Made by a program: the position numbers and the translations under genes. The notes under the pieces are model-generated. The model ran no database searches. It had not been told where the DNA came from and saw nothing but the letters and a program-made list of their open reading frames with translations. From assembly GCA_017311185.1 (NCBI GenBank), contig JAESUZ010002608.1:186001-250000 (forward strand): DNA of 64,000 nucleotides, given 5' to 3'. Origin of the DNA: Proteles cristata cristata. Lineage: Eukaryota; Chordata; Mammalia; Carnivora; Hyaenidae. Below are positions 29,946 to 42,788 of this stretch, in pieces (the first letter of the stretch is position 1; each line of letters starts with the position of its first letter).

Positions 29946-29997
29946 ATGGGATGGTCCCTCCGGCTCCTGGCCTGCCTGGTTGGCATCTTCCCAATGG
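29946..29997 (+). CDS. SIGLEC15: SIGLEC15 coding exon 1 (signal peptide)
   Basis: The ATG at 29946 has a strong start context (A at -3, G at +4). It opens 17 codons, MGWSLRLLACLVGIFPM, followed by one base of a Gly codon and a consensus donor GTAAGT at 29998 (phase 1). The LLACL core matches the leader of mammalian Siglec-15. A hydrophobic stretch with a nearby small residue (Gly18-Ser19) fits a cleaved signal peptide. The 5' UTR and transcription start lie upstream and cannot be placed from sequence alone. Confidence 0.9.
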
Positions 29998-32900: not shown

Positions 32901-35900
32901 CCAGGGGCACGGTCAGCCGAGGCTCCCCATCTGCAGCTCAGGCAAGTGGGGCCACATCCACAACCAAGTGGCGGAGAGGTAAGGCCAGAGAAGAAGCAGG
33001 GATAACCCCGAGCTCAGGAGAACAGCCAGACCTCTTCCTCCTTCCGCCCTGCCCCTCATCCCTTCCCTAAATGCTTCTGGGTCCAGCTCACACTGAAAGA
33101 TGGGATTCCTGTTTTCTCTGTCACCTCCCTCGTGATCTGCAGCCCTTTCTCACCTTTTCTCTACTGATAACCTATCTGCACAATTCACAGGCCCCAATAA
33201 GAATTGCTGGGAGTAAACTCAGGCAGGAGAGAAGTGGATGGAAGGCGGTGTGCCCCAGCTCAACCTACACGCCTCACTGGTGATGTTTGCTGGCCAAGAT
33301 GAGCATTTCCCCCTTGTCCCCAAATGCCCTCTCTTGGCCCCCCAGGTGCCACCATGCCCGAGAGGCTCCCACCGGAGTCACTCCCTGAGAACACCCCTGT
33401 TAACATGCCAAATGTCCCCAAGGAGGGTGGCCCCCTTACAGATAGGTGGCCTCATGAGAGTGGCTGCCTGCCCACTGGTGATGTCAGCCATCATGGGGCT
33501 GAGGGGGCAGCAGCACAGCGGAGCTCTGAGGGACTCCAGCTCTGAGCACCACGTGGCCACCCCTCTGGGAGGCACGGTCCACACTGATTACCCACACAGT
33601 CCCTAAGATGCTAAAGTGAGCTGCAAAAGGTGAAATGTCAGGGTACCATATCTTCACCCCTGCTACATCGGCTTAAGATGTGGGCCCAGAGCACTTCCCC
33701 ACCACTGCCCAAGCCCCCCACCCTGCTCCCTCGTATTCACCCTCCCTTGGCAGGGCTGGTGAGAGAAGGGGGCTAATGTGCATTGAGCATTTGCAGGGTG
33801 AGCTACACGTGTGACTTCATTCAACCTTCAAGCCCATGAGGAAGGTATTAGGTGCCCCAATTTGCAGCAAAGGAATCTGAAACCTGGGACAGTAATTAGA
33901 CTGCCCAAGGATCACCCAATAAGTGATTGAACCTCGGACTGGGTGCTCATAAGTGTCCGGGAAAGAATGACCACAAGTGAGATCATCACCCAGGTCCAGC
34001 TGTGCCAACGCAGGGAAGCTTGCCGGCATGCCCTGTGGTCCGCCATTGAGTAGCAGATGTGGACAGTGAGAGGAATGTGGGTCTCTTGTGGACCCTAGAG
34101 GCTAACAGTCCCAAGGCAAGGAGATTAGAGACTCCACAATAAGGGGGCTTGGTTTCAGTTCAGGAGCTGTCCCTCCCTTGCCCTAAAGATGGGCATGAGC
34201 TACCAGAGGGAATAACAAATGTCACAGGATTCTGGGGAGCTTGGATTCCTGCCAAAGCAAACGCATGTGCTCCCTGGGAAGTTCCTGCTGGGACTTCCCA
34301 CCCTCCCCTTGAGTCCCTGAGTGGATGCATCCAAAGTCTCTTGTGTAAGAGGGAGTCCAGGTGGTTGCCTCTTGAAACACCATTCAGCAGGTAAATAGGA
34401 AACACAAATCTCCCCCTAACTGGAGCCAAGTTCCTAACACTGGCGGAAAGGGCCTATGGGTGCCATCTCAGCTGCTAAAGCAAAGCCCCCTGGGAGGGAG
34501 AGGCCATGGCAGACCACCTGTATCCCACTTCGCCATGTTCCAAACCAGGCTTTCATCCTCGAGGGACACAGCGCACGGGACAAAGTAGAAACATGAACCA
34601 CCAAGGGGGAAGCCTTGGCTCTGCTTCTGGTTAGTCAAAGGACCTTGGGCAGTCACGTGGCCTCTCTGATACTCAGTTCTCCCTTCCCCAAAAGGGGCTA
34701 TTGCCAGCCTCTCATGGGGTTGTTGTACACATGAAATGGTATGAGGAATATCTCCCAGTGAGCACCCAAAGCACTGTGTCCCCTGGGCCCCTTATCTTGT
34801 CATGTCTGCAACCTCTATGCTGATGGCCTCACCTCCCTTTGCCTAGAACACCTACCATCTACAACAAGTCTTAGAAAATCCCCCTCCTTTCTCGAGGGTC
34901 TGTCTGGTGTCCTCCAAGCATTCCCTGCCTAATATTTGCACACCTCTTCCTCTTCCCCCAGCCCACACCACCCTCCCCTGCCAGCCTGATTACCCTCCCT
35001 TCTGCCCTATTTCAGCAACCCAGTTTAACATCAATTACTACACGGCAAGAGCCGTGCTAGGCATTAACGACAAATACTAGCAGACATATATGGTCCCTGT
35101 CCTCCCAGAGCTTCTGGGTGCCTGGAGGACAAACCTCTGCCAGCCCAGGGGCCCAAGGCAAGGGTGCCAGACCCAGGCTTGGAGGAAGGCCTCCCTCTGT
35201 AGGAAGAGTCAGCAAGAGACCTGGGGGTGACTGGGAGGAAGTTGGTGAGTGAAATGGGCCAGGAACCTTGTTCAGACAGAGGGAACATTGTTCGTGTCCC
35301 TCATTAGAGCACCTGGCAGGCTGTAGTGTAATTATGTGTTCACAGATCTGTCTCCTTTCTGAGTGGTGAACCCCAACAGGCTGATAAAGTATCCTATTGA
35401 TCTTTGTAACCCTGGCTTGTATCCAAGTGCCTGGCTTAGAGTGGGGACATGTCTGATAAATGTCTGCTAATTGATAGCAAAAAATATCTCTGGGCAATCA
35501 GTACCTGGCTCCAGGATGCCTGTAAGATTCAGAAGGTCAAAAGAGGCTGAGGTTACAGAGTGTGAGAAGCGTAGGGAAACTGAGGCAGGGACTGAGCCTC
35601 AAGAGTGGGGAAAAGTTTCTGCAGCTAGAAGTACTAAGTAAACCAAAAAAACCTTCAGAAAGAGTTTCTCCAATTTGAAACTAGGCCCTTTGGTTATTAA
35701 CAACTGAGCAAACAAGCTCTTACTAGAGGTAAATGTCAAGTCCCCCACTTGGGTTCAAAAGCATAATTCCACTTATTTAGAGGAAATGAGATTTGGCTTA
35801 TAAACAGATTGACTGCAAAAAGAACTTGTGGTTTTACTCAATTGCAAGCTCAGCACAAGCCCAAAGTGTAGTTTTATAAGAGGCAAAGCTCACACAACCC

Positions 35901-38900
35901 AATTCATACCCCACTCTGCTGGTCCAGCACCTCTGCGGCGCACACCAGCAGCACACCCCTGCAGGACATGTGCAACACACACCCGTGCAGCGCACACCTG
36001 CAGCACACACACCTGCAACACATTCCTGCAGCACACACCCCTGCTGTACACACCTATAGCACACCTACAGCACACTCCTGCAGCACACACCCCTGCTGTA
36101 CACACCTACAGCACACACCCCTACAGTGCACACCTGCAGCACACACACCTGCAACACACTCCTGCAACACACACCCCTGCCGTACATACCTACAGCACAC
36201 ACACCTATAGCACGCACCCCTACAGTGCACATCTGCAGCACACACACCTGCAGCACACATCCCTGCTGTACACACCTACAGCACACTCCTGCAGCACACA
36301 CCCCTGCCATACACACCTACAGCACACTCTTGCAGCACACACCTCTGCAGTGCACACCTACAGCATACACCCCTGCCATGCACACCTACAGCACACTCCT
36401 GCAACACACACCCCTACAGCACACACCTGCAGTCCCCAACTCAGGACACTACGTTGCAAGGAGAGCACCAAGCAGGCAGTGAGGAAGGGAGGGGCAGGGG
36501 AGGTCCTGGAATTTCCGCCAGAGAAGGGAAGGTTTAATGGGTCCAGGGTGGCCATGGTGGGGTCGCAGAAGGGCCATCACTGTGAGATGATGTGCATGTT
36601 CCAAAGAGCAGTGGGTCATGTCAGTAATGGTAGATGTTTCTATGCAGGAGGAATGTCCTGACCTGTAGATAATTCATAGATGGGATGGGCTTCTTGGAGG
36701 ATGGATGGTAACTGGCTGTGGGCCAGGATTCCAACCCAAGACATGAGCTACCCCCGAAGAGTAAAGAGCACTGGACATGGAGTCAGAAAAGCTGGGTGTC
36801 TCCCGTCATCTGTCTCTGTGACTGTGGAACTCCATTTTCTTATCTATAACAATATTCCCCCAAGTCTTTCTCCCCCAGGGTGTTTTGAGGGTCATGTGAC
36901 ATGATGTATCTAAAAGAACTGTGTAAATTACAAAGCTCTTGGGAGATAGAAAAGTGAGTATATTATTCCCTCGAAGGATCCCTTTTGTGAACTGCCTTCA
37001 GGGTTCTAGCTGGGTAGACCTAGCGCCCTGTTCTCCCTCATCAGGGAGAGACTGCCCCTAGTCTGTTCCTCGGAGGCCCAGGCCCAACACCCACCCATCC
37101 ACCTGCTCACCCCTTCCCCTGAGCAGCACACATATGCAACAACAGGGACAGGGGCTCTCCCGCCGTCTTCAAGCTGAAGGCAGAGCACAGCTTCCAGACC
37201 TTAGCTCAACCATACTTCAGAGGCTCACACACAGGAGGTGAGGAGGTAAGCCCAAAGGCACTTGCACAGAGCAAGAAAGCAGCACAGTGGTCTACCACTC
37301 TTGGTGCCTCAGCTCCTTACCTGGCCTTTTGGGAAGCCCATTCCTGTTGACCTGCATTTTCAAGGGATCTCATCCAATCCAACACATTAAGTTCAAAACA
37401 TGCCATCGCTTGCCAAGCCTGTTTCCCCTCTGTGAATGGGAGTGTTGGTCTCCTTGGATGAGCCCCAAGGCTCCATGCCTCTGTGGAGTCAGGCAGTCCT
37501 GAGTCTGAATGCTGGCTTTCCTTCCTAGCTATGTGACCTTATGTAATTACTCAACCTCTCTGTGCCTCAGTTTATTACATGCAACCCAGGAATAACTGTG
37601 CTTACATCTAGGATCATTTGTGAGAACTAAAAGAGATACTACTGGGAACTTGCTCAACACAGAGGTGCACAGTAAGTGCTCTTATTATCATCACTATCGC
37701 CGGGGTCTTGGGACTGTATTGTAACCGTGGAATCCTGGGCTTTGGGGCAGCAGGGCAGGCGTTAGGGAAGCGTACGGGGTTAGGGGACTTGTAGGCGCAG
37801 TGGGACCGCCCGAATGAGGCAGTCTCGGGCACCTCAAGAGTCATGGGAGACGAGATCCCGGGAGATGCCTCTCCAGTCACGGGGTGGGCTTCTGGGTCCC
37901 CAGGTGGGAGACGCTCCCAGAGTCCTAAGGTTTCCAGCCCCCCACCTCGGCGGGGATGCCCCCCCAGAGTCGGGGGGTGGGGGCCCGCGCGGCCCGGGGG
38001 CAGGGCTGACTCTCCGGGGGCCCGCCCGCAGGTGCGCCCGCCCAGCGCTGGTCCATGCACGTGCCGGCCGAGGTGAGCGCGGCGGCGGGCGAGGCGGCCG
38101 TGCTGCCCTGCACCTTCACGCACCCGCACCGCCACTACGACGGGCCGCTCACGGCCATCTGGCGCGCGGGCGAGGCGTACGCGGGCCCGCAGGTGTTCCG
38201 GTGCGCGGCGGCGCGGGGCAGCGAGCTCTGCCAGACGGCGCTGAGCCTGCACGGCCGCTTCCGCCTGCTGGGCAACCCGCGCCGCAACGACCTGTCGCTG
38301 CGCGTCGAGCGCCTCGCTCTGGCCGACGACGGCCGCTACTTCTGCCGCGTCGAGTTCGCCGGCGACGTCCACGACCGCTACGAGAGCCGCCACGGCATCC
38401 GGCTCCGCGTGACCGGTGAGCGCCGTACCCTTCTTCCCGGGCCCGTTCCCGCCCCGTCCCGTCCCGAGAGCTTTCCGGGCGCCCGCACTGCGCCCGCCGC
38501 GGGCATAGAAAGGCAGCAGCACACAGCCCCTCTCTAGCGTAGGGGTGTCTCACACCCGGCGATGGCCACGAGCCGCCTGAGAATTTGTTTAAAATGCAGA
38601 CTGCTTGCTCTGAGAAGGGCTGAACGGGGCCCAGGAATAGGCACTGTAATGAAGCGCGTAGAGGCGAACGTCCGCAGAAGCTCGCAGTCGAGGGGGAGAG
38701 AAGTACGGGTTGAACAGTAATCCTGAATATGGCAAAGCCTGCAATGGGATGTGTGCTCTGTGCACTGAAGGGCACCCGCAGCCCCTCGGGTGCAGGGTGC
38801 CCAGGGAGCCCACAAGTGCCCAGTACTTTGCTAGACCCTGGCATAAAGAAGTGGGAACCAAGGTCCCCGGTGCCTGGAACACTGGTTCTCAACCCTGGCT

Positions 38901-41900
38901 GCGCACTGGAATTAGCCGGGGCGCCTTTAAATATCCTAGCCCCACCCCCACCCTCCGTGCTGTGGGGATCCAGTTCTGGGTCCCAGTCTGGCTCTGCCAA
39001 GAACTTCCCATGTGCCCTTGGGCTGGCCTGGCTGCCTCTCCGAATGCATTTCAGTTTCGTCCCAGGGCCCTCGCCACCCTGCCGTAGACAGGTTGTCTGG
39101 GAGTGGGACGTGCCCCTGAAATCGTACCAGCAGACAGTCCCCAGCCCTGAGCTACGGCAACAATAACGAGTGAACATTTGTCAGTGGGCCACGCCCTAAT
39201 CCAAGTACCCAATATGTCTTAACTTGCCAAATCTTCTCAACGACCCCATAAGGTAAGTGATCCCCATTTTACGCATGAAGAAACTGAGGCACGGAGCTTC
39301 GGAATAACTTGCCCAAGGCCATATCTCTATTGGGACCCAGGCACCGTGGCGCTAGAGCGCCTACCGCCCCCAAATCTCTCGGTGACTAAAGGGGACTGGG
39401 AGGGGTCTCCCTTGCCCTTGCCTTTCCCTTTGCCCGCTATGCTCTGACCAGGATTCGCTTTCTGCGCCGACCCCTCGGCCGCCGCCCGCAGCCGCCCCGC
39501 GGATCGTCAACCTCTCGGTGCTGCCCGGCCCGGCGCACGCCTTCCACGCGCTCTGCACGGCCGAGGGGGAGCCGCCACCCGTCCTCGACTGGTCCGGCCC
39601 GGCCCTGGGCAACGGCTCGGCCGCCGCGCAGGGCCCGGGTCAGGGACAGGGTCACGGCCACCAGGTGACCGCCGAGCTGCCCGCGCTGGCCCACGACGGC
39701 CGCTACACGTGCACGGCCTCCAACAGCCTGGGCCGCGCGGAGGCCAGCGTCTACTTGTTCCGATTCCACGGCGCCTCCGGGGCCTCCGCGCTCGCCCTCC
39801 CGCTCGGGGCGCTCGGCCTCAAGGCGCTGCTGCTGCTCGGCGTTCTGGCCGCCCGCGCCGCCGCCCGCCGCCGCCTAGGTGGGTGCACTCTGGGGCCAGG
39901 GTGGGGCGGGGCGGGCGCTCTCCTAGGTAAGGCGGTCTCGCTGCCCTCCTGTCAAAACCCAGCCCGAACACTCTCTGCACCCGTGCGCCATCTCACGTTC
40001 CTCTCCCTGCGTACAGCCCAGGACGTGGGAACTAGCAAGGAGCTTCCTTTTACACTAAGGAAGCTGACACCGGAGAGGTTAAGGAACTTGCCTATGGCCA
40101 GCGGCAGAGATAGAGACCCGAAAAGCATAGCGCTGCCCTTTCGGCGGCACCCCATAAATGACTCCACAGTAAGGCTTCCCAAATAGCACCATTCTGGTGT
40201 GGTACAGTAAGCATCTTGAGGACCTACTGTGTGCTGTGTAGGTGCCAGGAATACAGAGATGAGTAAGAGATGCCCAGTCTGCAGGGAGAAGGGCTGTCCG
40301 GTTGCCCAGGTACCACAGAATCACAGAGTGGCAGACCACATTCTGGTGGGACATCTGGATAGGGGCCAGGAGGGAAGGTGAGAGCTAACTCAGAAACTCC
40401 AACGAGGAGCTTGGTGGTGTTCCCAGCAGAGGGAGCAGCAAACGCAGAGGTGAGGAAGTGTGAGTTAGTAGGGTGTCTGGGCGAGCTGCTCCTCAGGAGC
40501 GCCTGCTCTCGCTGAGCTGGTGGGGAAATCTGCTTGTGCCCCAGACAGGGGCTGCCCAGAGCTCCCAGGCCACCCAGGTCAGCAGCCCCAGACTCAGCCT
40601 CTCCTGGGATGGAATCCAAAGTTTGTCACAATTGCCCTTCCTGTGGCTATGCCATCGTCTGTCTTTCTGGTTCTAGAAACCCACCAAGCATTCTGTACTG
40701 CACAGTCCTCAGAAAGGGAGGTCTTTCTGCTGGGCGGCACCTCACGCTCCTCTCCTCCTCATTAACTCCTGGTCCTCTGCCAGGCCACTTCACACCCTGC
40801 TAGCTCGTGTTTGTTACACATCCCCTCAGAGCACTTTCCACAGTGGGGTAGGGTGGACAGCCAGGGCCTGTAGCCTGAGGCAACCATGGAGATTCATGCC
40901 TCCCCCCTCCACCTCTCTCTCTCTCTCTCTCTGTCCCTCACACAGAGCACCCAGTCACCCAGGACACCCCACCACGGTGAGTACCTTCCCCTCACCCACC
41001 CGGCTCTAGTCCCCACTGGCCAAGGTGTGCAGGCTTCTCAAGGCCCGTGCAATAAGGATAAAGAAGAGGGTTGGGGGCTGGACCTTGACCAGGGCTTAGA
41101 CTCCCCCTGTGGCCTTCCAAAGCCCTCCTCTTCGGTCTCCCAAGTCCTTGCCCTGATCAGGCCATGCTGACCTGCCCTCCCCACTCCACCACCAGCATTT
41201 ACAGTCTGGGCTTCACCCTGGTGTCTCTCCCAGACCTGCCTGGTTTCCTGGTGCTACAGGGCCATTTTCCTGTCTTATGTCCACACTAGATGTGATTCCT
41301 CAACGCTGTGTCTCCTCTTGTGCTCCTCAGCATTCTAGAACAGGCAGACTCACACAAAAGCCACCTGGGGGCACTGATTCTCCCCCAAAGCTGAAAACTT
41401 TGCAAACACAATGCCATTAGAGGTCCAGAGGGTTAAGCTAGGAAGCGCTGGTGCCCAGGCTCCCCTTCTCTCCCAGTGTCTGCTCATGTGGAAGTCTGTG
41501 TTGAAGAAGAAAGAATCCAATTCACTGACCCTGGGCAGTGTGCCTGGGATGCTGGGGAGTCAGGAGGTGGAACACAGTCTTTCAGGGCCCATTGGACAAA
41601 CCCAGGCATTCCTGTAACTCCATCCCTGCCTGTGCCGAGGCCTGGAGAAGCCATAATGCCAGCCCAGTCCCCTCTCTCCAGCTGCCTGCTCAACTATCCC
41701 CCACATTCTTGAAAACCTGTGCAATGTCCCTTTTCTTTGCTGATTCACTAGCACACCAAGGCACCTAAATCAGAAAGCTGAGTGTTCAAATATTTATTGA
41801 GTACCTGCCATGTACCAGACGCTGTTTTGGATACGAACACTACAGCAAACTTCCCTGACCTCAGAAAACTCACATAACATGGAGAATTTAATAAACACCT

Positions 41901-42788
41901 AGACACAATCATCTTAGATTCTAAAATAAGAGCTGTGAGGAAAATGGACAGGGCCACGCAGCAGAGCTCCCAGCGGAGGGAGGCATTCATGGGCAGGCCA
42001 AAGGCTCAGGGGACACCTGGGAATGGGCTGATGGGAAATCACTGAGTGGTGGGGAGCAGACAGGTGGCCCCATCTATACAAGAGTGGAGGCCAGGAGACT
42101 TTTGGGGTGGCTGCTGACGAAGGCTGAGGCCGGCTTGACACTAGGAAGGAGGTGGGCTGGTGGAGGTGGGGAGGTGGGGCAGGTGGAAGGCGGGGTTGAC
42201 CAGACGGCCAGGTGGGCAGCAGGGCCAAAGGAGGCAGCAAGGTGCCCAGGCCTGAGCTGTACCCTGGTGTCACTGACCAAGATGAAGACAAGAGAGAGGG
42301 AAGGGGTGGGGTGGTGAGGATCATGGGAGCACTTACATGTAGGTCTGAGGTGCTCATTAGGGAAGTCAAAGTCAGGAGAGCAGCTGGGGCTCAGGAGGCC
42401 AAGCCTAGGAGAGCAGTCTGGAGGGCACGTGACACAAGATGGTTGTTGAAGCCACCAACGAGATCCCTTAGAGAAGATGGAGCCTCTGCGGTCTGGGCTG
42501 CCATTCCCCAGAGCCTCCTCCCCGCTCCGCAGCTGCTGCCCCTGCCCTGTCTCCACCCTTCAGGTAGTCCCCAAGCCATCTCTGTTGTACTAAGCCCCAG
42601 GCCCCTCTCGTTCCCCCTTCCTGCCTGTCGCCGGGGCATGGTCTGGGCAAGTGGCAACGACCCCACTTCTGTATCGGGTAGTCAACCGACTCTCTTCTGT
42701 CCACAGGCCCCAGGCTCAGGAGTCCAACTATGAGAATTTGAGCCAGATGAGCCCTCGGGACCCACCAGCAGCCACATGTTTACCGTGA
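29946..42788 (+). CDS. SIGLEC15: SIGLEC15, sialic-acid-binding Ig-like lectin 15 (complete six-exon gene)
   Basis: Exons join at 29946-29997, 37612-37671, 38032-38415, 39492-39878, 40946-40976 and 42707-42788. They give 996 nt, 331 residues plus stop; I recall human as 328. All introns are GT-AG and all phases fit. Order: signal peptide (~1-19), short stem (~20-42), V-set domain (~43-165), C2-set domain (~168-257), transmembrane helix (~262-285) and cytoplasmic tail. V-set cysteines are C64, C142 and the extra pair C95/C104. R143 (motif YFCRVEF) matches the sialic-acid-binding arginine. K276 in the membrane helix matches the lysine (human K274) that pairs with DAP12. Sequons are N172 and N206. 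The tail has a conserved NYENLSQM motif, a YxxL-type signal. Family knowledge: cell-surface receptor on myeloid cells and osteoclasts, preferring sialyl-Tn-type glycans, promoting osteoclast differentiation and suppressing T cells. Exon 2 is MIR-derived. I am very sure of identity; exon ends are read by eye. Confidence 0.96.
30162..30215. repeat. 27-bp tandem duplication in SIGLEC15 intron 1
   Basis: Two copies of a unit starting CAGTGACTTTAGGCAATCCT differ by one base (CTCTGG versus CTTTGG). They lie 165 bp after exon 1. Confidence 0.9.
30965..31115 (-). repeat. MIR, antisense, in SIGLEC15 intron 1
   Basis: TTCACAGATGAGGCAACAGAGGT-like core with AGTAACTCACATAAGCCTCA upstream. Confidence 0.65.
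31350..31550 (+). repeat. MIR, sense, in SIGLEC15 intron 1
   Basis: CTGGCTCTGTGTGGTCTATT, AGCTGTGTGGTCCTTGGAAGG and a CAGTGATTGTGCAATAAATG end. Confidence 0.65.
33775..33945 (-). repeat. MIR, antisense, in SIGLEC15 intron 1
   Basis: CCCAATTTGCAGCAAAGGAA and GCCCAAGGATCACCCAATAA resemble reverse MIR. Confidence 0.55.
34625..34780 (+). repeat. MIR, sense, in SIGLEC15 intron 1
   Basis: GGACCTTGGGCAGTCACGTGG, CTCAGTTCTCCCTTCCCC and ATGGGGTTGTTGTACACATG follow MIR order. Confidence 0.6.
35300..35480 (+). repeat. L2-like 3' end in SIGLEC15 intron 1
   Basis: TCTTTGTAACCCTGGCTTG, AGTGCCTGGCTTAGAG and TCTGATAAATGTCTGCTAAT resemble the L2 3' end. Confidence 0.5.
35936..36432. repeat. Minisatellite in SIGLEC15 intron 1
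   Basis: About 500 bp of imperfect tandem copies of a ~12-13-nt core (GCACACACCTGCA / GCACACCTACA) are arranged in higher-order blocks of roughly 36-40 nt. All frames stay open over most of it, producing spurious Cys- or His/Thr-rich open frames on both strands. It lies in intron 1. Confidence 0.9.
36755..36970 (+). repeat. MIR, sense, in SIGLEC15 intron 1
   Basis: GTAAAGAGCACTGGACATGG and GGAGTCAGAAAAGCTGGG, ending AGAAAAGTGAGTATATTATT. Confidence 0.6.
37488..37697 (+). repeat. MIR SINE containing SIGLEC15 exon 2
   Basis: This matches the MIR consensus along its length: GTCAGGCAGTCCTGAGT, CTAGCTATGTGACCTTA, AACCTCTCTGTGCCTCAGTTT, then the MIR 3' half (GTGAGAACTAAAAGAGATA and CAGTAAGTGCTCTTATTAT). 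It has the same orientation as the gene. Coordinates are approximate to within about 10 bp. Confidence 0.88.
37612..37671 (+). CDS. SIGLEC15: SIGLEC15 coding exon 2 (60-nt stem exon, MIR-derived)
   Basis: This small exon has acceptor CATCTAG ending at 37611 and donor GTAAGT at 37672. Phase 1 on both sides lets it be included or skipped without a frameshift. It encodes the stem just after the signal peptide, with cores SFVRTK and NLLNTEVH that match human and mouse Siglec-15 as I remember them. The whole exon and both splice sites lie in a sense-oriented MIR SINE (37488-37697); the donor comes from the MIR segment AGTAAG(C/T)GCT. It is too short to stand out as an open frame and was found through its splice sites and phase. 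Confidence 0.9.
37900..38520. other. CpG island over SIGLEC15 exon 3
   Basis: CpG density is very high and GC content is well above the flanks. The island covers the V-set exon and its intron edges. It sits about 8 kb inside the gene, so it does not mark the coding start. Confidence 0.8.
38032..38415 (+). CDS. SIGLEC15: SIGLEC15 coding exon 3 (V-set Ig domain, sialic-acid site)
   Basis: 384 nt, phase 1 on both sides; acceptor CCGCAG ends at 38031 and donor GTGAGC starts at 38416. It encodes residues 38-166, starting APAQRWSMHV. Landmarks are LPCTF (C64), FTHPHRHYDGP, AIWRAGE, FRCAAARGSELC (C95, C104), LRVERLALADDGRYFCRVEF (C142, R143) and DRYESRHG. R143 is the ligand-binding arginine by position and motif. 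The exon lies in very GC-rich, CpG-dense DNA, and long open frames on the opposite strand here are by-products of that composition. Confidence 0.96.
39170..39355 (-). repeat. MIR, antisense, in SIGLEC15 intron 3
   Basis: CCCATTTTACGCATGAAGAA, ACTGAGGCACGGAGC and CTTGCCCAAGGCCATAT are clear reverse-MIR phrases. Confidence 0.75.
39440..39930. other. CpG island over SIGLEC15 exon 4
   Basis: A second dense CpG block covers the C2-set/transmembrane exon. It is separated from the first by about 900 bp of lower-GC intron containing an antisense MIR. Confidence 0.75.
39492..39878 (+). CDS. SIGLEC15: SIGLEC15 coding exon 4 (C2-set Ig domain and transmembrane helix)
   Basis: 387 nt; acceptor CCGCAG ends at 39491 and donor GTGGGT starts at 39879. 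The exon starts APRIVNLSV, with C2-set cysteines at 187 (HALCTAEGE) and 239 (GRYTCTASNSLG). It continues through VYLFRFHGASGAS into a hydrophobic helix with K276 (GLKALLLLGVLAA) and a stop-transfer ARAAARRRL. Sequons are N172 (NLS) and N206 (NGS). The C-E loop holds a Gly/Gln/His-rich run, GPGQGQGHGHQ, which by my recollection makes it two residues longer than in human. The exon is GC- and CpG-rich. Confidence 0.95.
40000..40135 (-). repeat. MIR, antisense, in SIGLEC15 intron 4
   Basis: AGGAAGCTGACACCGGAGAG, then GTTAAGGAACTTGCCTATGG and CAGAGATAGAGACCCG. Confidence 0.6.
40912..40932 (+). repeat. (CT)n microsatellite in exon-5 acceptor tract
   Basis: A run of about ten CT units ends 14 bp before the SIGLEC15 exon 5 boundary. 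It serves as most of the polypyrimidine tract of that acceptor. Confidence 0.9.
40946..40976 (+). CDS. SIGLEC15: SIGLEC15 coding exon 5 (juxtamembrane tail, 31 nt)
   Basis: A 31-nt exon between acceptor CACACAG and donor GTGAGT. It completes a Glu codon and encodes EHPVTQDTPP plus two bases of Arg. Human has EHLDTPDTPPR at this place as I recall, so both identity and phase agree. The polypyrimidine tract of its acceptor is a (CT)n microsatellite at 40912-40932. Confidence 0.88.
42707..42788 (+). CDS. SIGLEC15: SIGLEC15 coding exon 6 (C-terminal tail and stop)
   Basis: The acceptor TCCACAG ends at 42706. The exon encodes (R)PQAQESNYENLSQMSP, then RDPPAATCLP and TGA at 42786-42788. The tyrosine motif NYENLSQM is the conserved tail signature. 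The last residues differ from human (which ends ATMCSP), as expected for a fast-evolving C-terminus. I found no AATAAA on the + strand between the stop and about 48.1 kb, so the end of the 3'UTR is unknown. Confidence 0.93.

What the first reader, a model, noticed from the sequence alone, without database searches (positions are those of the whole stretch)
37488..37697. SIGLEC15 exon 2 was born from a MIR transposon
Seen: exon 2 (37612-37671), its acceptor and its GTAAGT donor are all inside a sense MIR. Upstream is the MIR core AACCTCTCTGTGCCTCAGTTT, and downstream MIR sequence continues with GCTCTTATTAT. The MIR phrase AGTAAGYGCT supplies the donor, and MIR CTCATAGGG aligns with the acceptor CATCTAGGA. 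Known: MIRs spread before placental radiation, and MIR exonisation has been seen in other genes. As I recall, human and mouse Siglec-15 have the same 20-residue stem, so the exaptation should predate their split. Inference: a SINE supplied the extracellular stem between the leader and V-domain of an immune checkpoint receptor. The symmetric phase (1-1, 60 nt) lets the exon be skipped cleanly, giving a stem-less isoform. I know of no report of this origin.
Basis: partly seen in the sequence, partly recalled or inferred. Interest (0 to 1): 0.86.

Follow-up and report, generated by a model that had tools for sequence, protein, structure and literature searches.

The report
Transposon-born front tail of Siglec-15
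A 60-base coding piece of the immune-receptor gene SIGLEC15 matches an ancient jumping element (a MIR) and its product is found in receptor models from all four main groups of placental mammals but not in the marsupial, platypus, bird, reptile or amphibian models examined, so a placental ancestor likely turned the element into an exon that adds a tail, predicted to be floppy, beside the receptor's sugar-binding pocket.

Summary
Window 37481-37681 is a sense MIR (E 1.1e-17). SIGLEC15 exon 2 (37612-37671) and both its splice sites lie inside it. A consensus from 68 MIR copies of the same genome, picked only by a 21-mer upstream of the exon, matches exon 2 plus splice sites better than all 5000 shuffles.

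Of 73 named placental models 63 carry the exon-2 peptide, across all four superorders. Of 68 named non-placental models none does; 37 of these pass a crude test for a leader running straight into the V-set. The exon was likely gained on the placental stem.

Exon 2 encodes the membrane-distal N-terminus of the mature protein: human chain 7zoz begins inside it, AlphaFold gives pLDDT under 50, and the crystal model starts at residue 42, two residues before sialic-acid contact W44. Skipping is supported only by one desman model.

MIR exonisation is a known kind, with DMWD as precedent. I found no report for SIGLEC15 in the held library, but two dedicated MIR-exon papers are not held.

The parts
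37481..37697 (+). MIR SINE, sense to SIGLEC15, covering the end of intron 1, exon 2 and the start of intron 2
   Evidence: nhmmer aligned 37481-37681, envelope 37461-37697, E 1.1e-17 with the recalled consensus; E 9.5e-6 with a leave-target-out profile from the window; genome-derived consensus
37553..37573 (+). MIR core 21-mer AACCTCTCTGTGCCTCAGTTT, used to pick genome copies independently of the exon
   Evidence: 193 copies in the own genome, 0 in the reversed control
37591..37611 (+). MIR-derived 3' splice region: AATAACT (possible branch site, inferred) through acceptor ..CTAG
   Evidence: aligned to consensus AATAATAATACCTACCTCATAG; branch site not tested
37612..37671 (+). SIGLEC15 exon 2, 60 nt, phase 1-1, encodes SFVRTKRDTTGNLLNTEVH(S)
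   Evidence: gene model; match to human chain 7zoz_A; peptide in 63 of 73 named placental models
37632..37634 (+). AGA (Arg) where the MIR consensus has the stop TGA in the frame that is read
   Evidence: alignment to the genome-derived consensus; completes R-T-K-R, a furin-like motif (motif recalled)
37672..37677 (+). donor GTAAGT supplied by MIR AGTAAGT
   Evidence: consensus ATAGTAAGTACTC aligns here
29946..29997 (+). SIGLEC15 exon 1 coding part, leader MGWSLRLLACLVGIFPM(G)
38032..38415 (+). SIGLEC15 exon 3, V-set domain with sialic-acid Arg143
   Evidence: 7zoz_A E 1.6e-80
39492..39878 (+). SIGLEC15 exon 4, C2-set domain and transmembrane segment with Lys
40946..40976 (+). SIGLEC15 exon 5, cytoplasmic
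42707..42788 (+). SIGLEC15 exon 6 coding part with stop

Best explanation
Exon 2 of SIGLEC15 is a stretch of a sense-strand MIR SINE that likely became a coding exon on the placental stem lineage, using the MIR's own AG and GTAAGT as splice sites and adding a 20-residue tail, predicted to be unstructured, to the N-terminus of mature Siglec-15 beside its sialic-acid pocket. Steps: (1) shown: the MIR consensus of this genome is a ready cassette, CATAG|63 nt|GTAAGT, and the present copy keeps both sites with 60 nt between them. (2) Shown by alignment: the frame that is read would hold a TGA stop in the consensus, and here it is AGA; small indels leave the length a multiple of three. (3) Shown at the level of gene models: the peptide is in all four placental superorders and in none of 68 named non-placental models, of which 37 pass a crude test for a leader joined directly to the V-set domain. 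(4) Inferred: the gain was fixed before placentals radiated and the exon is included constitutively in most species. (5) Inferred: the tail is kept for a modest role at the membrane-distal face, such as spacing the V-set domain from the leader's cleavage site or tuning access to the glycan pocket. It ends six residues before W44, a modelled contact of Neu5Ac.
For: MIR match E 1.1e-17; leave-target-out E 9.5e-6. 68 genome copies picked by the upstream 21-mer give a consensus that exon 2 plus splice sites matches at z 8.0, 0 of 5000 shuffles. Controls do not match MIR: exon 1, the first 84 nt of exon 3, and 40930-41010 around exon 5 (z 1.1, -1.3, 0.0; 300 shuffles each). Human chain 7zoz_A starts FVRTK.. 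and the authors' construct is residues 20-263. 63 of 73 named placental models have the peptide, 0 of 68 named non-placental models do. BLOSUM scores are bimodal: 64 of 158 proteins at 54 or more, the other 94 at 28 or less. A search with residues 1-58 of P0064 gave 55 proteins of 69 candidates, all from placentals or the unnamed P0008; one of them, P0044, lacks the peptide. In 40 placentals (of the 63; models with clean lengths) the segment has no gap or insertion, and S19 and T34 are invariant. AF2 pLDDT is under 50 at residues 16-39 of P0001; the 7zoz model covers residues 42-166; W44 touches NHAc of Neu5Ac in simulation (passage of PMC10264397).
Against: Exon 2 alone is only moderately above chance (2 of 5000), and the one neighbouring MIR copy does not match the exon part. 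No RNA was seen. No marsupial, monotreme or reptile DNA was held, so whether the MIR itself is absent there, or present but not spliced, is untested. 31 of the 68 non-placental models do not pass the leader test (partial or other 5' ends) and say less. Ten of 73 placental models lack the peptide: seven begin at or after the V-set start with no leader (P0034, P0054, P0062, P0063, P0065, P0074, P0115), one is a 5' fragment of other sequence (P0056, dingo), one has other sequence there (P0044, Chlorocebus), and one joins leader to V-set (P0066, Galemys). Constraint is modest: mean identity between superorders is 0.705 for exon 2 (minimum 0.25), 0.635 for the leader and 0.897 for the V-set. A functional role of the tail is inferred only.
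Confidence: 0.88

Rival explanations
1. The MIR inserted, and perhaps was spliced, already in the therian ancestor, and marsupials lost the exon; the placental pattern is retention, not gain.
For: MIRs were active in the common ancestors of mammals (stated in PMC2394776). The opossum automated model P0075 carries sequence like translated antisense MIR before the V-set (RLSDLPKVTQLVTVRS against RLSNLPKVTQLVSGRA; 0 of 1000 shuffles), so MIR-type sequence likely sits in or near that intron too.
Against: The opossum piece is in the opposite orientation to the placental exon and does not resemble its peptide (score 17). Tasmanian devil models P0071 and P0073 and platypus P0077 join leader to V-set directly, as many sauropsid models do, so a gain in placentals needs fewer steps.
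Confidence: 0.1
2. Exon 2 is an old coding exon of non-repeat origin whose resemblance to MIR is chance or comes from a MIR inserted next to it.
For: Exon 2 alone reaches only z 5.4 against the genome-derived consensus (2 of 5000 shuffles) and nothing against the neighbouring copy.
Against: The alignment is collinear through exon, splice sites and flanks; exon plus splice sites is reached by 0 of 5000 shuffles; none of 68 named non-placental models has the exon.
Confidence: 0.03
3. The exon is MIR-born but has no function: a tolerated neutral tail that persists because it does no harm.
For: The tail is absent from the crystal model and unstructured in prediction; identity is lower than in the V-set; one desman model lacks it.
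Against: No length change or gap in 40 placentals, invariant S19 and T34, D26 in 39 of 40. Mean identity between superorders is 0.705, where a neutral simulation gives 0.56 at 0.3 substitutions per site and 0.47 at 0.4 (0.67 at 0.2; the divergences are assumed, and frameshifted models would not have been seen).
Confidence: 0.3

Closest known systems
DMWD exon 2, a conserved MIR exon (Sela et al. 2007, PMC2394776; passages seen)
   Different: DMWD's exon is alternatively spliced there. The SIGLEC15 exon sits between signal peptide and ligand-binding domain of a cell-surface immune receptor, and its gain is bracketed here by xenarthran, afrotherian, marsupial, monotreme and sauropsid models.
MYT1L exon 5, MIR exon, constitutive in human and mouse (same paper)
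   Same: A MIR exon that appears constitutive.
   Different: A different, nuclear protein (recalled); lineage bracketing not seen in the passages.
FGB intron 1 MIR pseudoexon (PMC4615370, passages seen)
   Same: A MIR supplies the splice sites of a new exon.
   Different: A cryptic exon activated by a mutation, not a fixed coding exon.
Siglec-15 structure 7zoz (PMC10264397, passages seen)
   Same: The expressed human protein includes the exon-2 segment.
   Different: The passages seen do not discuss the tail's origin; residues before 42 are not in the model.

Membership tests
MIR (CORE-SINE) | Conserved core near AACCTCTCTGTGCCTCAGTTT | tested here: met
   Exact 21-mer at 37553-37573; 193 genome copies
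MIR (CORE-SINE) | Collinear match over most of the element | tested here: met
   Positions 29-240 of a 258-nt recalled consensus
MIR (CORE-SINE) | tRNA-related 5' end with pol III promoter boxes | tested here: inconclusive
   The alignment starts at consensus position 29; boxes not examined
MIR (CORE-SINE) | L2-like 3' tail and target-site duplication | not tested
   TTATTATCA follows the donor and resembles the consensus tail; duplication not sought
SINE exonisation | Both splice sites lie inside the element | tested here: met
   Acceptor AG at 37610-37611 and donor at 37672-37677 within the aligned MIR
SINE exonisation | Exon absent in outgroups | tested here: met
   0 of 68 named non-placental models; protein level only
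SINE exonisation | Exon present in mature transcripts | not testable with these tools
   No RNA held; only gene models and the human expression construct
Siglec-15 | V-set with sialic-acid Arg143, transmembrane Lys | tested here: met
   R143 and K276 invariant in 62 sequences; 7zoz match
Proprotein-convertase substrate (furin type) | R-X-[KR]-R motif (recalled) | tested here: inconclusive
   Motif in the window and in 26 of 40 placentals; missing in 14, among them both xenarthrans, five mouse-like rodents and both simians; cleavage not testable here

The most novel reading that the evidence does not exclude
The MIR gave Siglec-15 a placental-only regulatory cap on its sugar-binding pocket. The change that removed the MIR stop codon (TGA to AGA) also made the Arg that completes R-T-K-R|D, so in the species that keep this motif (26 of 40 examined, the window's among them) a convertase would trim the new tail and re-shape the face around W44, while simians including humans read RTKI and keep the full tail. 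Carnivoran and human Siglec-15 would then differ in ligand access through a transposon-born segment. (Probability lowered from 0.12 to 0.10 on recheck, because the motif is also missing in both xenarthrans and in mouse-like rodents.)
Probability: 0.1. Interest if true: 0.82.

Novelty: new member of a known kind. Interest (0 to 1): 0.62.

Why it matters
Coding MIR exons shared across placental orders look rare: Sela et al. found four MIR exons shared between human and mouse in their set. This one changes the membrane-distal end of an immune receptor described as an emerging cancer-immunotherapy target (abstract start of PMC10264397). The outgroup bracket (marsupial, monotreme, sauropsid and amphibian models without the exon) makes an exon birth datable and testable, and the tail lies in the construct used for binding and antibody work, although the only Siglec-15 structure my searches found does not show it.

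Tried and rejected
Stem or stalk reading: rejected, because the segment is N-terminal to the V-set. RNA hairpin as the exon signal: no unusual fold (z -0.74, 47 of 200 shuffles as stable). Inverted MIR pair (37481-37697 and 39156-39382) pairing around exon 3: duplex energy not unusual (17 of 200 random pieces as good). The neighbouring MIR copy as sole comparator failed for the exon part. Scan of 68 copies for exon-ready MIRs (AG, GT, multiple of three, open in phase 1): 0 of 68; 12 have both AG and GT, 2 of these with a length divisible by three; the test is strict because old copies are gapped. A direct DNA search of the own genome with 37591-37697 did not complete. In the first PDB search I gave the V-set in the wrong frame and got no match; corrected. 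Literature: no listed paper links SIGLEC15 to a MIR in its title or the start of its abstract; these are listings, most of them capped (15 of 29,780; 11 of 11; 20 of 89; 12 of 14; 10 of 509; 2 of 2; 15 of 27; 15 of 33). The two papers that hold both 'siglec15' and 'transposable element' are off topic by title. 'siglec' and 'cd33l3' occur 0 times in the main texts of PMC2203978, PMC2879366 and PMC2394776, and 'siglec' 0 times in that of PMC7786948. Krull 2007 and Lin 2009, dedicated MIR-exon papers seen in reference lists, are not held; supplementary files were not open to me; two of the four shared MIR exons of Sela et al. are unnamed in the passages seen.

Full report
What is there. The window holds SIGLEC15 on the + strand in six coding exons: exon 1 29946-29997, exon 2 37612-37671, exon 3 38032-38415, exon 4 39492-39878, exon 5 40946-40976 and exon 6 42707-42788, with AG and GT at the intron ends, giving a 331-residue protein. 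The exon ends were set by hand from the sequence and the known protein; no RNA was available. Its V-set matches human Siglec-15 chain 7zoz_A at E 1.6e-80, and the top full-length relative is 95 percent identical (Neofelis nebulosa), so the source is probably a carnivoran (inferred).

Is the exon inside a MIR? With a MIR consensus recalled from memory, nhmmer finds 37481-37681 on the + strand at E 1.1e-17. To remove memory from the test I used the window's genome. The 21-mer AACCTCTCTGTGCCTCAGTTT, upstream of the exon, occurs 193 times and its reversed control 0 times. I took the first 68 places listed of these 193: 8 delivered and 60 fetched; the target is not among them. Their consensus downstream of the 21-mer came out as cctcatctgtaaaatggggataataataatacctacctcatag|ggttgttgtgaggattaaatgagttaatatatgtaaagtacttagaacagtgcctggcacata|gtaagtactcaataaatg (bars are mine). 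Exon 2 with splice sites scores z 8.0 against it (0 of 5000 shuffles), exon 2 alone z 5.4 (2 of 5000). A profile from ten other MIRs of the window finds the target at E 9.5e-6 with the target left out. Against the one neighbouring MIR copy the exon part does not rise above chance, and 41 of 12,788 window 60-mers reach exon 2's own score. In the global alignment to the consensus the exon matches 40 of 58 aligned bases, 0.69; the 68 copies average 0.72 over the same cassette. So it looks like an ordinary old MIR.

How the exon arose. The consensus offers AG and GTAAGT 63 bases apart. The present exon has 60 bases; the alignment shows small indels near its start and small losses near its end. In the frame that is read the consensus would have one stop, TGA, and here it is AGA (37632-37634). 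Eighteen of 68 copies still show TGA at that place, and 18 others have a gap there. In the present copy the other two frames hold stops. Codon 18 is Gly whether exon 1 is joined to exon 2 (G+GA) or to exon 3 (G+GT) (sequence), and Gly18 is invariant in the 62-sequence alignment. That fits insertion at a pre-existing exon 1-exon 3 junction (inferred; no outgroup DNA was seen).

Who has it. Two protein searches gave 158 distinct proteins (120 listed of 151, 120 listed of 220; clusters at 90 percent identity, some species twice). Scores to the exon-2 peptide split cleanly: 64 at 54 or more, 94 at 28 or less. By name, sorted by me from the listed names: 63 of 73 placental models have it, including Xenarthra (Choloepus, Tamandua), Afrotheria (Dugong, Rhynchocyon, Chrysochloris, Orycteropus, Elephantulus, Tenrec, Loxodonta), Laurasiatheria and Euarchontoglires; 0 of 3 marsupial, 0 of 2 monotreme and 0 of 63 sauropsid or amphibian models have it; 1 of 17 unnamed ones does. 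Thirty-seven of the 68 non-placental models pass a crude test for a direct leader-to-V-set join (Met start, V-set Trp at residue 18-33); a few of these have doubtful leaders (P0080, P0096, P0150), and the other 31 have partial or other 5' ends. A third search with residues 1-58 of P0064 gave 55 hits of 69 candidates, all from placentals or the unnamed P0008; one, P0044, lacks the peptide. Human was not among the proteins named in the listings; human evidence is chain 7zoz_A. The ten placental models without the peptide are listed in the Against line. The only one that joins leader to V-set directly is Galemys P0066, while another talpid, Condylura P0040, has the exon.

What the segment does. 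It is not a stem. The human construct begins at residue 20 (PMC10264397, passages seen), so the peptide forms the start of the expressed ectodomain. AlphaFold2 on P0001 with a 62-sequence alignment gives pLDDT under 50 at residues 16-39. The 7zoz model covers 42-166 although the construct starts at 20. W44, which contacts the N-acetyl group of Neu5Ac in the paper's simulation, is six residues after the tail. In 40 placentals (of the 63; I chose models with clean lengths) there is no length change, and S19 and T34 are invariant. Mean identity between superorders is 0.705, above the leader (0.635) and below the V-set (0.897); a neutral simulation gives 0.56 at 0.3 and 0.47 at 0.4 substitutions per site (divergences assumed). 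I read this as modest constraint on a flexible tail at the glycan-binding face. The role itself is inferred. A furin-like R-X-[KR]-R motif (recalled) is present in 26 of 40 placentals, and its last Arg is the codon that replaced the stop in this window. It is missing in 14: both simians in the set and human (RTKI), both xenarthrans, five mouse-like rodents, pig, oryx, golden mole, slow loris and pika. Cleavage is untested.

Known or new. MIR exonisation is well documented; a conserved coding case exists in DMWD, and a constitutive one in MYT1L (PMC2394776, passages seen). That study found four MIR exons shared by human and mouse, of which the passages name two. In the searches listed under Tried and rejected no listed paper tied SIGLEC15 to a MIR, but two dedicated MIR-exon papers were not held. 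I therefore file this as a new member of a known kind, with the caveat that a catalogue may already list it without comment.

Noticed in passing
P0075 (Monodelphis domestica model A0A5F8GZ98), residues 1-39: The opossum automated, 5'-incomplete model carries RLSDLPKVTQLVTVRS before the V-set, matching antisense MIR translated (0 of 1000 shuffles): either a model artefact or a second, independent MIR contribution at the same protein position.
   Followed up: partly
window 37623-37637: RTKR|D furin-like motif in the tail; R-X-[KR]-R in 26 of 40 placentals, missing in simians (RTKI), both xenarthrans and mouse-like rodents among others.
   Followed up: partly
P0066 (Galemys pyrenaicus): The only placental model with a leader that joins it directly to the V-set, while the talpid Condylura P0040 has the exon: loss, skipping or model error.
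   Followed up: no
window 35828-36661: Long ORF with THTCSTH-like repeats, probably a minisatellite in SIGLEC15 intron 1 (inferred from the translation).
   Followed up: no
window 39156-39382: Antisense MIR in intron 3, strongest MIR hit of the window (E 4.2e-19), inverted to the exon-2 MIR around exon 3; predicted pairing is not unusual.
   Followed up: yes
P0073 (Sarcophilus isoform 1): Carries 19 extra residues between V-set and C2-set that isoform 3 (P0071) lacks; unrelated to exon 2.
   Followed up: no
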